A DNA stretch of 38,803 nucleotides from Clostridia bacterium (lineage in GTDB: Bacteria; Bacillota; Clostridia; Christensenellales; UBA1242): NCBI GenBank assembly GCA_017444895.1, contig JAFSVR010000016.1, positions 1 to 38,803 of the forward strand, written 5' to 3'. This document shows, piece after piece, positions 23,566 to 30,998 of the stretch; within the stretch, counting starts at the first letter, position 1; each line of letters starts with the position of its first letter. The notes beneath the pieces are model-generated. The model was not told the DNA's origin. It was given only the letters and a program-made list of their open reading frames with translations, and searched no databases. The position numbers and the translations under genes were made by a program.

Positions 23566-24468
23566 TTACATTAAATAGTTGCACGCACTTGTTCCCGCAA
23601 TTGCTCCATCATTAATGGCTGTCGCAACTTGTCTAACCTGCTTTGCTGTGCAATCTCCCGCAACAAACAGTCCTGGGGTTTTTGTTGACAAATCATCTTT
23701 CCTAACGAAATATCCCTTTGAGTCTAGTTCGGCGAGGTTTTCAAACTTCTTATTATCTGGAACTTGCCCTATGGCAACAAAAAGCGCCTTTGTTTTAACA
23801 TCAAGCTTCTCTCCGGTTTTTGTGTTTTCAAAAACAAGTTCTTCAAGTTCATTTTCACCAATAATTTGTTTAAGCGCAAATACATGCGAAACTTTTATAT
23901 TTTCCTTTGCTAAAACCGCATCAACAAGCGCCTTGTCTCCAAAAAACTTATCAAATAGAGTTACGATATGAACGCTTTTAGCATAGCCTGAAAGCAAAAG
24001 TGCATATTGAAGCGCTGTGTTAGCATCTCCGATGAGCACTATATCATCACCAGCATAAAACGCACCATCACAAAGCGCACAATAGCTTATGCCATGGCCA
24101 ATAAGCCTTTCTTCTCCATCAACATTAAGCATTCGGTGCTTGCAACCTGTTGCTATAATAACGCTTCTTGATTCTAAAATTTTCCCATCAACAGTAACCT
24201 TGAAGACATCGCCTTCTTTATCAACTTTCTCAACATCACCAAATTCAAAATTTGCGCCCTTATTCATTATTTGCGTAAAAGTTTTGTCGGCAAGTTCGCT
24301 TCCAGAAATACTCTCTATGCTTGGGTAGTTTTCAACCTTTGGGCTTTCAGAAATTTGCCCACCGATCCCATTTTTTTCAATAATCGTCACAGTTTTATTT
24401 TGCCTTAGAGCGTAAAGGCAGGCCGTCATGCCTGCCATCCCCGCGCCGATAACAATCAAATCAGTCAT
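23566..24468 (-). CDS. trxB: Thioredoxin reductase
   Basis: A 300-aa low-molecular-weight flavoprotein that uses a pyridine nucleotide to reduce thioredoxin-like proteins. FAD-binding IGAGMAGMTACLYA at the N-terminus, redox disulfide CALC (near 131-134), nucleotide-binding IGDANTALQYALL and the C-terminal FAD motif GLFVAGDCTA. The second GxGxxA-type site is IGDANTA rather than GGGDSA, so its cofactor preference (NADPH, NADH or ferredoxin) is uncertain. Its ATG abuts the nrdD stop codon (TAGATG), so it is translationally coupled to nrdD; the fused redoxin on NrdD is the obvious partner. Confidence 0.93.
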   Translation of the reverse strand: MTDLIVIGAGMAGMTACLYALRQNKTVTIIEKNGIGGQISESPKVENYPSIESISGSELADKTFTQIMNKGANFEFGDVEKVDKEGDVFKVTVDGKILESRSVIIATGCKHRMLNVDGEERLIGHGISYCALCDGAFYAGDDIVLIGDANTALQYALLLSGYAKSVHIVTLFDKFFGDKALVDAVLAKENIKVSHVFALKQIIGENELEELVFENTKTGEKLDVKTKALFVAIGQVPDNKKFENLAELDSKGYFVRKDDLSTKTPGLFVAGDCTAKQVRQVATAINDGAIAGTSACNYLM

Positions 24469-26832
24469 CTATTTCAAACTTCCTATGTATCTATTAATCT
24501 CGCTGGCGTTGTCATATCTATCATAAACTTCGCCGTTTGGAACAAGAAGTGTTGGTGCCTTCAAAACGCCATAACTCTTGGTCACTTCTGCATTGTCTTC
24601 CGCATCAATTACGGTATATTTTACGCCTGCTTTATCAAGAAGCATTTTTGCCATTTTGCAGTTTGGGCACGTTTTTGTTGTAAATAATAGCAGTTCATTG
24701 CCACATTTTGCAGTTTTTTCATCTTCATGATGCTTGCATCCGCAGTGTTTGCTTTCGTCAAGATGAGATTTAGAAATGTCATATTCGCTTCTATCTTTGA
24801 ACTCTTGAGTCTTTCCATCGTTCCAGTTCGCAATTGGCCTATAATATCCTGTAATTCGGCTATAAACCTCAGTTTTCTTTCCACACTCTGGACATTCATA
24901 AACTTCGCCAGCAATATATCCATGCTCACTGCAAATTGAATATGTTGGGCTCATGGTGTAATATGGCAATCTGTAATTCTCGGCAATCTTTCTAACAAGC
25001 TCAGCAGTTGCCTTCCAATCGCTAAGCCTTTGCCCCAAGAATGCATGGAAAACCGTTCCTGAAGTATAAAGTGTTTGGAATTCATCCTGGATATCAAGTG
25101 CTGTGAAGATATCTTCGGTGTATCCAACTGGAAGATGTGAACTATTTGTATAATAAGGTGTTCCATTTTCATTAGCCGTGATGATATCCGGATATCTTTC
25201 CTTATCGTGTTTTGCAAAACGATATGAGGTTGATTCTGCTGGAGTGGCTTCAAGGTTATAAAGGTCGCCATACATCTCTTGGTAATCAGAAAGTCTTTCT
25301 CTCATATGATTGAGGACTTTCTTGGTGAACTCTTGAGCCTTTTTGTTTGTTAAATCTTCTCTAAGCCACTTAGCGTTAAGGCACGCCTCGTTCATTCCAA
25401 CAAGGCCAATTGTTGAGAAGTGGTTGTTGAATGTTCCAAGATATCTCTTTGTGTATGGATAAAGCCCGCTTTCAAGTAATTTTTCAATAGTTTCTCTCTT
25501 GATCTTAAGCGACCTTGCAGAGATGTCCATAAGTTTATCAAGCCTATCAAAGAAATCATCTTCGCTGGCTGATTCATAAGCAAGTTTTGGCATGTTAAGA
25601 GTTACAACACCAACCGAACCTGTGCTTTCTCCGCTTCCAAAGAATCCACCAGATTTCTTTCTGAGTTCTCTTAAATCAAGGCGAAGACGGCAACACATAC
25701 TTCTAACATCACTAGGTTCCATATCGCTGTTGATATAGTTTGAGAAATATGGAGTTCCATATTTTGTTGTCATCTCAAATAGCAAACGGTTGTTTTCGGT
25801 GTCGCTCCAATCAAAATCCCTTGTTATTGAATACGTTGGGATTGGATATTGGAATCCTCTGCCATTAGCATCTCCCTCAATCATAATCTCAATGAAGGCC
25901 TTGTTTACCATTGCCATTTCTTTTACGCAATCTTTATATTTGAAATCCTGTTCTTTTCCGCCAACAATTGCAGGCAATTCTGCAAGATCCTTTGGAACAA
26001 CCCAATCAAGGGTTATGTTTGTAAATGGTGCTTGTGTTCCCCAACGAGATGGAGTGTTAACGCCATAAACAAAACTTTGAATACATTGCTTAACTTCTTT
26101 ATATGTTAAATTATCTTTCTTAACGAAAGGTGCAAGATAGGTATCAAAAGACGAAAAAGCTTGCGCCCCTGCCCACTCGTTTTGCATAATTCCCAGGAAG
26201 TTTACCATTTGGTTGCAGAGGGTTGAAAGGTGGCTTGCTGGAGAGGAACTAATCTTCCCAGGAACCCCGCCAAGCCCCTCTTTAATGAGTTGTTTGAGCG
26301 ACCACCCTGCACAATACCCTGAAAGCATAGAAAGGTCATGAATATGGATGTCGCAGTTGCGGTGTGCATCTCCAATCTCCTTATCATAAACTTCACTAAG
26401 CCAATAATTCGCCGTCATCGCACCTGAATTAGACAGAATTAACCCACCAATAGAATAAGTTACGGTTGAATTCTCTTTAACACGCCAGTCGGCCAGTTTA
26501 AGATATTTATCAATCGTGTTTTTATAGTCTAAAAGAGTGTTTGATATGTTGCGAATCTTTTCATGATTCTTTCTATATATAATATAGCATTTTGCAACAT
26601 TCTCATATCCGTTCTTCATCAAAACCTTTTCAACAATGTCTTGAATGTCCTCAACGGTTGGAAGTGTTTTGTCAAACTTTTCCATGAGCTCAAGTTCGGT
26701 GATCTTTGCAAGTTTTTTGCAATCTCTAACATCCCCTTCTCCTAAACTCATCATCGCCTTAACAATAGCGTTTTCAATTTTTGAGATGTCATAGTCAACA
26801 ATTCTTCCATCTCTTTTGATTATCTTATCCAT
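24469..26832 (-). CDS. nrdD: Anaerobic (class III) ribonucleoside-triphosphate reductase with fused thioredoxin-like domain
   Basis: A 787-aa enzyme making dNTPs from NTPs without oxygen. Residues 1-90: ATP-cone (KRDGRIVDYDISKIENAI). Core: MCCRLRLDLRELRKKSGG and SVGVVTLNMPKLA, very like Thermotoga NrdD. Zinc site CSEHG...CPECG; glycyl-radical loop RITGYYRPI near residue 660. After a short Cys/His-rich linker (HCGCKHHEDE) a domain of about 80 residues follows, LLLFTTKTCPNCKMAKMLL...APTLLVPNG, with a CPNC redox motif and the cis-Pro of thioredoxin/glutaredoxin folds. It is far longer than usual because of this fusion. Start chosen at MDKIIKRDG, 7 nt after AAGGAG. Putative NrdR boxes overlap the promoter. 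Confidence 0.96.
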   Translation of the reverse strand: MDKIIKRDGRIVDYDISKIENAIVKAMMSLGEGDVRDCKKLAKITELELMEKFDKTLPTVEDIQDIVEKVLMKNGYENVAKCYIIYRKNHEKIRNISNTLLDYKNTIDKYLKLADWRVKENSTVTYSIGGLILSNSGAMTANYWLSEVYDKEIGDAHRNCDIHIHDLSMLSGYCAGWSLKQLIKEGLGGVPGKISSSPASHLSTLCNQMVNFLGIMQNEWAGAQAFSSFDTYLAPFVKKDNLTYKEVKQCIQSFVYGVNTPSRWGTQAPFTNITLDWVVPKDLAELPAIVGGKEQDFKYKDCVKEMAMVNKAFIEIMIEGDANGRGFQYPIPTYSITRDFDWSDTENNRLLFEMTTKYGTPYFSNYINSDMEPSDVRSMCCRLRLDLRELRKKSGGFFGSGESTGSVGVVTLNMPKLAYESASEDDFFDRLDKLMDISARSLKIKRETIEKLLESGLYPYTKRYLGTFNNHFSTIGLVGMNEACLNAKWLREDLTNKKAQEFTKKVLNHMRERLSDYQEMYGDLYNLEATPAESTSYRFAKHDKERYPDIITANENGTPYYTNSSHLPVGYTEDIFTALDIQDEFQTLYTSGTVFHAFLGQRLSDWKATAELVRKIAENYRLPYYTMSPTYSICSEHGYIAGEVYECPECGKKTEVYSRITGYYRPIANWNDGKTQEFKDRSEYDISKSHLDESKHCGCKHHEDEKTAKCGNELLLFTTKTCPNCKMAKMLLDKAGVKYTVIDAEDNAEVTKSYGVLKAPTLLVPNGEVYDRYDNASEINRYIGSLK

Positions 26833-26857: not shown

Positions 26858-26887
26858 AGAATAACACCCCACAAGATATAGTGTCAA
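26858..26887 (-). promoter_or_regulatory. nrdD-trxB promoter
   Basis: Minus-strand TTGACA (26882-26887), then TTATTC (26859-26864, 17-nt spacer) or TATTCT (26858-26863, 18-nt spacer). NrdR-like box 1 fills the spacer. Confidence 0.65.
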
Positions 26888-26916
26888 ACAAAAACAAAAA
26901 ATCATATATGTTGTGT
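26869..26916 (-). promoter_or_regulatory. Pair of NrdR-like boxes upstream of nrdD
   Basis: Compared with the published palindrome acaCwAtATaTwGtgt, box 1 (26869-26884, minus strand ACACTATATCTTGTGG) matches at 14 of 16 positions and box 2 (26901-26916, ATCATATATGTTGTGT) at 12 of 16. The two start exactly 32 bp apart, three helical turns, the spacing typical of NrdR pairs. Box 1 overlaps the -35 and spacer. NrdR represses nrd genes when dATP is high. Confidence 0.75.
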
Positions 26917-27116
26917 TTTTCAAATATTTTTGAACAAAATTATATTTGCCACTATCCCCTTGTGTAAAATATTAGAAAAAATGGCACATTGAGACCAATA
27001 ATTATGTTTTCATACCTTTTATTTTTTGTCATTTTTTGTCATATATTTTTGGGCATATTGAACAAAAAATAACATTTTTTGAAAAATAGCATTTTTTATT
27101 TGACAAGCCCCAAAAA

Positions 27117-27164
27117 CCACAACAAATAGTATAATATCACAAAACCAAGCCCAATATCTTGTGT
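27117..27164 (+). promoter_or_regulatory. Second pair of NrdR-like boxes, upstream of asd
   Basis: Box 3 (27117-27132, CCACAACAAATAGTAT) matches the NrdR palindrome at 12 of 16 positions and box 4 (27149-27164, GCCCAATATCTTGTGT) at 13 of 16, again exactly 32 bp apart. Box 4 overlaps the presumed -35 of asd. The 402-nt gap between nrdD and asd is otherwise very AT-rich, with nothing else recognised between 26920 and 27110. Confidence 0.45.
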
Positions 27165-27186
27165 TTTATCAAGTTTGCCTTATAAT
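27159..27186 (+). promoter_or_regulatory. asd promoter
   Basis: TTGTGT (27159-27164), 16-nt spacer, perfect TATAAT (27181-27186); leader about 40 nt to the ATG. Confidence 0.55.
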
Positions 27187-27234
27187 GGCAATTTAGGGCT
27201 TTTTTGCATAATATAAGGGGTGTGTGAGGTGAAT

Positions 27235-28188
27235 ATGAATATTGCCCTTATTGGTGCCACCGGTCTGGTTGGCAGAAAGATTATAAGCGTTCTCAATGAA
27301 AGGGGGCTTTTGAAGAAAAACAACCTTGTTTTATATGCCAGCCCCAAGTCTGGTGGAACAACAATCAAGGTTGGCAGAAGCTGTTTTTTGGTTAGCGCCC
27401 TCTCCCCTCAAACCATCCAAGGGGTTGATGTTGCAATTTTTTCAGCGGGCAAAACAACAGCAAAAAAATACGCCCCCTTGTTTGCAAAGCGTGGCGCTTT
27501 TGTTATAGACAATTCAAGCGCATTTAGGCGAAGCCAAAAAGCGGTTTTGATTGTTCCAGAAATCAACCCTGAGCAGATTAGTGTTCAAACAAAGATAATT
27601 GCAAACCCAAACTGTTCAACCATTGGGCTAGTATTGATTTTAAGAGAAATAGAAAAACTAGCAAGGATTAAGCGTGTTGTTGTTAGCACTTATCAGGCAG
27701 TAAGTGGCGCTGGCAAACTAGGACTAGACGACCTTGCCCATAAAACGGCAAAAAAGTTTAACTACCCCATTTCAAACAATCTCATTCCTCAAATAGATGT
27801 TATGCTAAAAAACGGCAACACCTTTGAGGAAGATAAAATGATATATGAAACTCAGCGAATTCTGGGTAAAAGAATAAACTTATCCGCAACCTGCGTCCGT
27901 GTTCCAATCAAGAACTGCCACAGCGAAAGCATTAACATTGAACTTGCAAAACCTGTTTCAATACCCCGCATCAAAAAAGCACTACTATCCGCACCCGGCA
28001 TATCATTAACCGACTTTCCAATGCCCCTTATTGCAGACAATCAAGATAATGTTATTGTTGGCAGAATTCGCAAAGACTATTCAACAAAAAACGCCATCAA
28101 CCTTTTCATTTCTTTTGACAACCTCAGAAAAGGCGCCGCCACCAACGCCGTTCAAATCCTTGAAATTTTACAATCACGTTTTTTCTGA
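27235..28188 (+). CDS. asd: Aspartate-semialdehyde dehydrogenase
   Basis: A 317-aa NADPH-dependent enzyme reducing aspartyl phosphate to aspartate semialdehyde, the branch point to lysine/diaminopimelate, threonine and methionine. N-terminal Rossmann motif GATGLVGRK; catalytic cysteine in NPNCSTIG (about Cys126); substrate motif SGAGKLG; RVPIKNCHSES holds the conserved His. GAGGTG precedes the ATG by only 3 nt; an in-frame GTG at 27229 with AAGGGG upstream is an alternative start. It stands alone, divergent from nrdD. Confidence 0.93.
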   Translation: MNIALIGATGLVGRKIISVLNERGLLKKNNLVLYASPKSGGTTIKVGRSCFLVSALSPQTIQGVDVAIFSAGKTTAKKYAPLFAKRGAFVIDNSSAFRRSQKAVLIVPEINPEQISVQTKIIANPNCSTIGLVLILREIEKLARIKRVVVSTYQAVSGAGKLGLDDLAHKTAKKFNYPISNNLIPQIDVMLKNGNTFEEDKMIYETQRILGKRINLSATCVRVPIKNCHSESINIELAKPVSIPRIKKALLSAPGISLTDFPMPLIADNQDNVIVGRIRKDYSTKNAINLFISFDNLRKGAATNAVQILEILQSRFF

Positions 28189-29447: not shown

Positions 29448-30998
29448 ATGAACATAAGAACTATTTTGCATAGCGAACTAGATTGTCATTTGAAGCCAGA
29501 CCTAGATTTGATTAAGCAAGGCATCTCAGAAATTTTTGAAACTGGGAAAATTAAAGACCATGGAGCCATTGCAGAAATGCTCTCAAAGGTTGAAGAGGCC
29601 ACAACTCTAATAAACAAAGAAAAAAGTCTTGCCAGCAAACTTAAAACCGCAAGCAATGAAGAAAAGCAACAAATCAAGCAAGAAAAGGATATCACAACAG
29701 ATAAAGCAGATGTGGCCCTTGAAGATGCCCTGACGCTTCTAATGAAGGTTGGCGGAAAAGATGCATACCATTATGACTACGACAACCCTTTCAACATGGT
29801 TGTTGCTGGTCTTATGGGAAGCACATGCTATATGAAGGAAGACTTCAAAGCCCTTCAAGAAAAAAGAATCCGAAACATTTTAACAATTTCAAACGTTGTT
29901 TTGAACAATGGCCACCATTCAACATTTGGGCATTCCCACGTTACACTTGAAATAAGCCAAATTCCAAAGGCCCTTGCAATGATCCTGAACAACGAAAAAG
30001 AGTGCGCTGTCAGCGAAAAGTCTGCAAGATACACAGTTATGGATCAAATAGAGCCAAAAGAATTGGAACTTTATGAAAAATGGAAAGACATTTTCACAAG
30101 AGAAATCACCCAAAAATATGGCGACAGCCAACCATTCTTTGATGAAAAGGGGGTTCGTGCAACAAAACTTGCGCAAGAAAACGCAAGATATATGATTTCA
30201 GCATTCACTCCAACCAATATGGTTTATACAACGAGTTTCAGGCAACTCAATTATCTTGCACACTGGCTTAAAAACGAACTAAACAACCCAAATTCAAATA
30301 AGTTCTATGCCGGCGTTAAAACCGAAATGTCAGAATTTATTGCGTTCGTTAAAGCAAACAACCTATACCTTGAAAACCTTGAAGACCATAAAGACCGAAA
30401 ACTTTCCCTCTTTGGACCTGGCGTTCTTGGCGAAACCCTTTCTAGCGAAACCTACACCCTTAACTACAACACTTCTATCGCCTGCCTAGCACAAGCACAT
30501 CGCCACAGAACAATTGGCTACAGAATCAATGAATTCAGATTTAACAACGAGCCATCTCAATTCTTCCTTCCCCCTCTTCTTAAAAACCTTGGAGACCAAG
30601 ATTTGATTAACCAATGGTTTGAAGATATCCGTAGTGTTGAAGAGACAATACCTCAAGGCAAACTTGTTAACGTTGTTGAAAACGGAGAAACAAAAAACTT
30701 TTTGCTCAAAGCCCTTGAAAGAGAGTGCTCTGAAGCACAATGGGAAGTTATGGACCTAACAAGAAGGTATTCTCAAAAATTTAGTGATGCCCTCAAAGAA
30801 GAAATTGCTCAAGGCACCGAAAAGGCAAACAGCCTTGACGGGCTAGACAAAGAAGATGCCATCAACTCTATTGAAAGCATCAAACAAATGCAAACAAAAT
30901 TTGAAAAGCTTTCAAATGGCGCAAGATGCACAGCCGGCTATAAATGCCTTCGCCCTTGCGGGTTCAAAGACGGCATAACTCTTGAAAGAGATATATAA
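29448..30998 (+). CDS. thyX: ThyX-type flavin-dependent thymidylate synthase, long two-module form
   Basis: A 516-aa protein, about twice a normal ThyX (220-250 aa). ThyX makes dTMP from dUMP with methylenetetrahydrofolate and FAD. First module: residues about 30-80 a Lys/Glu-rich helix, then HHSTFGHSHVTLEISQIPKA and SEKSARY, the substrate/FAD pattern, but without the RHR triad in its usual place. Then FTPTNMVYTTSFRQLNYLAHWL, like the ThyX C-terminal part. Second module: AQAHRHRTIGYRINEFRF supplies an RHR near residue 351. It ends with a Cys-bearing segment (RCTAGYKCLRPCGF). Similar long ThyX proteins occur in Chlamydia (recall). dut in the same window supplies dUMP. Confidence 0.8.
   Translation: MNIRTILHSELDCHLKPDLDLIKQGISEIFETGKIKDHGAIAEMLSKVEEATTLINKEKSLASKLKTASNEEKQQIKQEKDITTDKADVALEDALTLLMKVGGKDAYHYDYDNPFNMVVAGLMGSTCYMKEDFKALQEKRIRNILTISNVVLNNGHHSTFGHSHVTLEISQIPKALAMILNNEKECAVSEKSARYTVMDQIEPKELELYEKWKDIFTREITQKYGDSQPFFDEKGVRATKLAQENARYMISAFTPTNMVYTTSFRQLNYLAHWLKNELNNPNSNKFYAGVKTEMSEFIAFVKANNLYLENLEDHKDRKLSLFGPGVLGETLSSETYTLNYNTSIACLAQAHRHRTIGYRINEFRFNNEPSQFFLPPLLKNLGDQDLINQWFEDIRSVEETIPQGKLVNVVENGETKNFLLKALERECSEAQWEVMDLTRRYSQKFSDALKEEIAQGTEKANSLDGLDKEDAINSIESIKQMQTKFEKLSNGARCTAGYKCLRPCGFKDGITLERDI

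What the first reader, a model, noticed from the sequence alone, without database searches (positions are those of the whole stretch)
27117..27186. A second NrdR-type box pair overlaps the asd promoter
Two 16-bp sites matching the NrdR palindrome at 12 and 13 positions lie exactly 32 bp apart, the same spacing as the pair at the divergent nrdD promoter. The downstream box overlaps the presumed -35 of asd. If real, dATP-sensing NrdR would control aspartate-semialdehyde dehydrogenase, coupling deoxynucleotide pools to cell-wall/amino-acid precursor synthesis, which I have not seen described. Alternatively the four boxes cooperate on nrdD by looping.
Basis: partly seen in the sequence, partly recalled or inferred. 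Interest (0 to 1): 0.7.

Follow-up and report, generated by a model that had tools for sequence, protein, structure and literature searches.

The report
NrdR operator pair before asd gene
In a small-genome Clostridia bacterium, the repressor that switches off DNA-building-block synthesis appears to have a second, evolutionarily kept landing site in front of a gene for a lysine and cell-wall precursor, which would tie the two supply lines together if it is used in the cell.

Summary
Boxes 3 (27117-27132, 12/16) and 4 (27149-27164, 13/16) lie exactly 32 bp apart, as at nrdD. (1) Genome scan: single boxes are mostly chance, but pairs are rare. The 836-kb genome has three such loci: nrdD, nrdR itself, and asd. 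No 32-bp pair arose in a 456-kb control scan or in 5000 shuffles. (2) Conservation: same-genus genome G001 keeps the pair at the same spacing (11/16 and 15/16). Box identity is 81% against 44% in the spacer, and all four base pairs critical for NrdR binding are retained. There the divergent operon is dapB-ddh-asd, so the pair has stayed with the promoter while the first gene changed. Of 29 nrdD loci in the family, only the two facing asd/dap have a second pair. The same operon elsewhere, away from nrdD, has none. Best reading: dATP-loaded NrdR represses asd (ancestrally dapB-ddh-asd) as well as nrdD. Main rival: a distal second operator for nrdD, as proposed for Listeria nrdAB. Sequence cannot separate these, and there is only one evolutionary origin. 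Nothing has been tested biochemically.

The parts
27117..27132 (+). NrdR-type box 3 (CCACAACAAATAGTAT), 12/16; distal box of the asd-side pair
   Evidence: conserved 13/16 in G001 with 5/5 flanking bases; C4 and G13 kept
27149..27164 (+). NrdR-type box 4 (GCCCAATATCTTGTGT), 13/16; asd-proximal box; its last 6 bases TTGTGT could serve as a weak -35
   Evidence: G001 counterpart ACACAATATGTTGTGT is 15/16; C4 and G13 kept
27181..27186 (+). presumed -10 (TATAAT) of asd, 16 bp after the weak -35 in box 4
   Evidence: read directly from sequence; the pair of hexamers is not called by the promoter scan, so inference
27235..28188 (+). asd, aspartate-semialdehyde dehydrogenase (317 aa; a GTG at 27220 is an alternative start)
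   Evidence: TIGR01296 344.8 bits (cut-off 324.2), NF011456 353.1 bits (cut-off 223)
26869..26884 (-). NrdR box 1 (nrdD-proximal), 14/16
   Evidence: overlaps the nrdD promoter
26901..26916 (-). NrdR box 2 (nrdD-distal), 12/16
   Evidence: a pair is found at 26 of 29 family nrdD loci
26858..26887 (-). nrdD promoter TTGACA-18-TATTCT with extended -10 TG; the same promoter with a 17-bp spacer is in G001
24469..26832 (-). nrdD, class III (anaerobic) ribonucleotide reductase with N-terminal ATP-cone and C-terminal glutaredoxin-like domain; the only RNR found in the genome
   Evidence: TIGR02487 and NF006126 over cut-off; Pfam NRDD, ATP-cone, Glutaredoxin; no PF02867 in the genome

Best explanation
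Boxes 3 and 4 form a functional NrdR operator. Shown by sequence: a motif pair three helical turns apart, conserved and rare. Inferred from NrdR biochemistry: when dATP is plentiful, NrdR loaded with dATP and ATP binds the pair as a tetramer, bends the DNA and blocks RNA polymerase at the adjacent promoter. In this genome that promoter drives asd; in relative G001 (probably the ancestral state) it drives dapB-ddh-asd. The same signal that shuts off nrdD (boxes 1/2) and nrdR (its own pair) would thus also lower supply of aspartate semialdehyde for the diaminopimelate/lysine branch.
For: Only three pair loci in the 836-kb genome: nrdD, nrdR, asd. 0/5000 shuffles in each of two genomes. 0 control pairs in 456 kb. 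Pair kept in G001 at exactly 32 bp although the downstream gene differs: boxes 26/32 identical, spacer 7/16, downstream leader 31/70. All four C4/G13 positions intact in boxes 3 and 4 of both genomes; inverting these base pairs lowers NrdR binding about 50-fold (PMC9110341). The genome encodes NrdR over the family cut-off with D15, R17, KRRR 26-29 and R37, the specificity and backbone residues. The 16-bp gap is in the optimal 15-17 bp range (PMC12051234). The pair sits 70 bp before asd and 46 bp before dapB, as NrdR boxes do at RNR genes. A second pair occurs at 2 of 2 nrdD loci facing asd/dap and 0 of 27 others.
Against: One evolutionary origin in two genomes. The same operon order in G028 and G042, and the other dapB/asd loci scanned, lack a pair within the DNA examined (about 1.5 kb each side). 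lysC-dapA in this genome has no pair, so the pathway as a whole is not co-regulated. Genus mates G002 and G003 have an asd-ddh operon away from nrdD without boxes. The asd -35 is weak. NrdR is described as RNR-specific (PMC9110341), and a proposed non-RNR target, topA, has been questioned (PMC12051234).
Confidence: 0.58

Rival explanations
1. Boxes 3/4 are a distal second operator for nrdD: NrdR at both pairs tightens nrdD repression (bridging or cooperative binding across about 250 bp), and asd is a bystander.
For: L. monocytogenes nrdAB has a proximal and a distal NrdR pair upstream of one RNR operon, and tighter repression by simultaneous binding is suggested there (PMC12051234). Centre-to-centre distance is 248 bp here and 236 bp in G001, a difference close to one helical turn. 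nrdD is the sole RNR found.
Against: None of the 27 other family nrdD loci has a second pair within 1 kb. Boxes 3/4 lie more than 200 bp from the nrdD promoter and next to the other gene's start in both genomes. Looping by DNA-bound NrdR has not been shown: the dATP/ATP octamer must dissociate to bind DNA (PMC9110341).
Confidence: 0.22
2. The pair is real but its effect on asd is incidental or vestigial: it was acquired or kept after the dap operon landed beside nrdD, with little physiological role.
For: The pair occurs only where the operon neighbours nrdD, not at the same operon elsewhere. G000 has no detectable dapB, ddh or homoserine dehydrogenase, so asd flux may matter little. lysC-dapA lacks a pair.
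Against: Boxes are conserved far above the spacer and leader, including all GC contacts, which a vestige should not show.
Confidence: 0.12
3. Chance resemblance in AT-rich intergenic DNA, or the site of another factor.
For: Single boxes of 13+/16 are barely above control (32 vs 25 in the genome). Another conserved block, TTTTTTATTTGACA at 27091-27106, lies close by.
Against: Pair-level rarity, shuffles, phylogenetic footprint and retained C4/G13.
Confidence: 0.08

Closest known systems
NrdR box pairs at nrdDG, nrdAB and nrdHEF promoters (E. coli, Listeria, Streptomyces)
   Same: 16-bp palindromes, about three helix turns apart, next to or over the promoter; cognate NrdR with conserved DNA-contact residues in the genome
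   Different: target here is asd (dapB-ddh-asd in the relative), not an RNR gene or nrdR
Listeria monocytogenes nrdAB four-box region (PMC12051234)
   Same: two NrdR pairs in one regulatory region, with 15-16 bp gaps
   Different: there both pairs lie upstream of one RNR operon; here they lie in a divergent intergenic region, one pair near each gene
Pseudomonas aeruginosa topA as proposed NrdR target (PMC4409342)
   Same: a non-RNR gene claimed to be under NrdR
   Different: topA has a single box and apparent activation, since questioned (PMC12051234); asd has a full pair in canonical phase
NrdR autoregulation
   Same: a pair directly upstream of nrdR in G000 and G001
   Different: self-control is already known (PMC9110341); asd is not a regulator

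Membership tests
NrdR operator (NrdR box pair) | two 16-bp palindromic boxes matching ACACWATATATWGTGT | tested here: met
   12/16 and 13/16 here; 11/16 and 15/16 in G001
NrdR operator (NrdR box pair) | gap of 15-17 bp (three helical turns) | tested here: met
   16 bp in both genomes; range from PMC12051234
NrdR operator (NrdR box pair) | conserved GC base pairs at positions 4 and 13 of each box | tested here: met
   all four kept in both genomes; importance from PMC9110341
NrdR operator (NrdR box pair) | NrdR encoded in the same genome with Zn-ribbon, ATP-cone and DNA-contact residues | tested here: met
   TIGR00244 185 bits; Pfam domains; D15, R17, KRRR, R37
NrdR operator (NrdR box pair) | pair conserved in relatives with the same neighbourhood | tested here: met
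   kept in G001, the only other family genome found with this neighbourhood; one origin only
NrdR operator (NrdR box pair) | overlaps or adjoins the promoter of the regulated gene | tested here: inconclusive
   adjacent to the asd/dapB start, but the promoter hexamers are weak or ambiguous
NrdR operator (NrdR box pair) | dATP/ATP-dependent NrdR binding and repression | not testable with these tools
   needs purified protein or reporters
classical NrdR regulon (RNR genes and nrdR) | the adjacent gene is an RNR gene or nrdR | tested here: not met
   asd by TIGR01296 and NF011456; dapB-like, ddh and asd in G001

The most novel reading that the evidence does not exclude
NrdR is a dual regulator in this lineage: the dATP/ATP ratio sets not only deoxynucleotide synthesis but also the aspartate-semialdehyde/diaminopimelate branch that feeds the cell wall, giving a direct transcriptional link between DNA precursor status and wall precursor supply.
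Probability: 0.4. Interest if true: 0.75.

Novelty: new variant of a known kind. Interest (0 to 1): 0.52.

Why it matters
NrdR is regarded as an RNR-specific repressor, and its one proposed non-RNR target found in the papers read here, topA, is disputed. A canonical two-box NrdR operator kept in front of a diaminopimelate-pathway operon would be a well-formed non-RNR target. It would offer a simple way by which a very small genome matches wall precursor synthesis to DNA precursor status, and would make that coupling directly testable.

Tried and rejected
Single-box genome scan: uninformative, 32 hits against 25 for the reversed motif. Boxes at other dap/asd loci: 61 loci scanned, pairs only in the G001 ones. 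Boxes at lysC-dapA: none. A lost class I/II RNR gene as origin of boxes 3/4: no class I/II RNR in any of the four genus genomes, so no support. Strong upstream hexamers TTGACA (27100) and TATAAT (27130) as the asd promoter: the spacing is 24 bp, not a sigma-70 arrangement. Helical phasing of the two pairs as a test of looping: the 12-bp difference between genomes is about one turn, not decisive. Strong pairs near recombinase genes in G093: neighbouring genes are integrases and serS; not pursued. Literature: the few papers that hold both NrdR and asd/diaminopimelate/lysine-biosynthesis terms look unrelated by title and abstract (not read in full); the library lacks most subscription papers, including the original NrdR-box paper of Rodionov and Gelfand 2005, and RegPrecise could not be queried.

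Full report
SETTING. The window is contig C5 (38,803 bp) of an 836-kb, 97% complete genome, G000. A same-genus relative, G001, corresponds to a goat-rumen Clostridia MAG (contig JAFSXW010000069.1). nrdD (24469-26832, minus strand) and asd (27235-28188, plus) are divergent around a 402-bp intergenic region. NCBIfam confirms NrdD, Asd (TIGR01296) and, on another contig, NrdR (TIGR00244). No class I or II RNR was found in G000 or its three genus mates, so NrdD appears to be the only RNR.

THE OBSERVATION. The four boxes and both 32-bp spacings are as reported. Single boxes at 13 or more of 16 matches are close to background (32 in the genome against 25 for the reversed motif), so a lone box means little. 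Pairs are different. A pair pattern with up to 3 mismatches at 22 positions finds three loci in G000: nrdD, nrdR (between a ylmC-like gene and nrdR) and asd; the asd pair (2 mismatches) scores as well as the best of the other two (genes). In held family DNA (456 kb, partly overlapping) the motif gives 22 pairs of summed score 24 or more, the reversed motif none. No dinucleotide shuffle of 5000 reaches the observed pair at 32 bp, in G000 or in G001.

CONSERVATION. In G001 nrdD faces dapB-ddh-asd (families; the DapB match is below its curated cut-off, 79.9 against 122 bits, so this DapB is divergent). The intergenic regions align throughout. Boxes 3 and 4 are each 13/16 identical, the spacer between them 7/16, and the stretch from box 4 to asd 31/70; the nrdD pair shows the same pattern (13/16 and 12/16 with spacer 5/16). 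Box 4 in G001 is a 15/16 site. The bases that matter most in the NrdR-DNA structure, C4 and G13 of each box (PMC9110341), are intact in boxes 3 and 4 of both genomes, whereas box 2 at nrdD in G000 has lost C4. The NrdR of G000 keeps D15, R17, KRRR at 26-29 and R37.

DISTRIBUTION. Among 29 nrdD loci of the family, 26 have at least one pair within 1 kb; only the two that face asd/dap have a second pair. The order dapB-ddh-asd also occurs in G028 and G042 away from nrdD (gene identities there from the searches and by reading), so it is an older operon; those copies and the other dapB/asd loci scanned have no pair. In G002 and G003 the asd-ddh operon is elsewhere and without boxes. G000 itself has no detectable dapB or ddh, so asd now stands directly behind the promoter. 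It does have lysC-dapA (C43:26198-28269) without a pair, and no homoserine dehydrogenase. The simplest history (inference): the operon came to lie beside nrdD in the common ancestor of G000 and G001, gained an NrdR pair at its promoter, and later lost dapB and ddh in G000 while the pair stayed.

MECHANISM. Known: NrdR loaded with dATP and ATP binds as a tetramer to two boxes about three turns apart, kinks the DNA and blocks RNA polymerase; ATP-loaded NrdR does not bind (PMC9110341, PMC12051234). By inference the same should happen at boxes 3/4, reducing asd transcription when dATP is plentiful. The position is right (70 bp before asd, 46 bp before dapB in G001). The promoter itself is not firmly identified: TATAAT at 27181 has only a weak -35 in box 4, and in G001 the best-scoring hexamers begin just downstream of box 4 (2364-2393 of L008).

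RIVALS. Listeria nrdAB carries a distal NrdR pair whose role is unclear and may tighten repression (PMC12051234), so a long-range effect on nrdD is possible; the box distribution argues against it but rests on one origin. A by-product without physiological weight is also possible, since lysC-dapA is not included and G000 lacks dapB and ddh. Chance is unlikely.

VERDICT. A confirmed, conserved NrdR-type operator pair at an unexpected gene. Control of asd is the best single reading (0.58). The broader claim of coupling DNA and wall precursor supply is plausible but unproven.

Noticed in passing
G000 contig C53:7161-7208 (locus L088): NrdR pair (12/16 and 14/16, 32 bp) directly upstream of nrdR, also present in G001 (C26:33961): autoregulation. 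A survey of Proteobacteria (PMC5343134) never found NrdR autoregulated, though other work reports self-control.
   Followed up: partly
26939-26968, minus strand: A second nrdD promoter-like site TTTACA-18-TATAAT (11/12) upstream of boxes 1/2, not called in G001.
   Followed up: no
27091-27106: Block containing TTTTTTATTTGACA, 15/16 identical between G000 and G001, just upstream of box 3; perfect TTGACA and TATAAT hexamers (27100, 27130) are 24 bp apart. Role unknown.
   Followed up: no
24469-26832: NrdD carries a C-terminal glutaredoxin-like domain (Pfam PF00462) and is followed by a thioredoxin-reductase-like gene (23566-24468, named by eye only).
   Followed up: no
29448-30998: A 516-aa protein matching Thy1/ThyX in two stretches, far longer than a usual ThyX; possibly a duplicated or fused form, in the same neighbourhood as nrdD and nrdG.
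   Followed up: no
G093 C39:12774-12821 and C36:24273-24320 (L116, L129): Very strong NrdR-like pairs (1-2 mismatches) beside tyrosine recombinase genes; one lies between serS and a recombinase, the other at the end of an integrase gene. NrdR sites or recombination sites?
   Followed up: partly
G002 C43 and G003 C46 (L083, L084): A thymidine kinase gene lies directly upstream of nrdD in the same direction, a different dNTP-gene neighbourhood in genus mates.
   Followed up: no
G000 whole genome: lysC, dapA and asd are present but dapB, ddh and homoserine dehydrogenase were not detected: either a partial diaminopimelate pathway or a very divergent missing step.
   Followed up: partly
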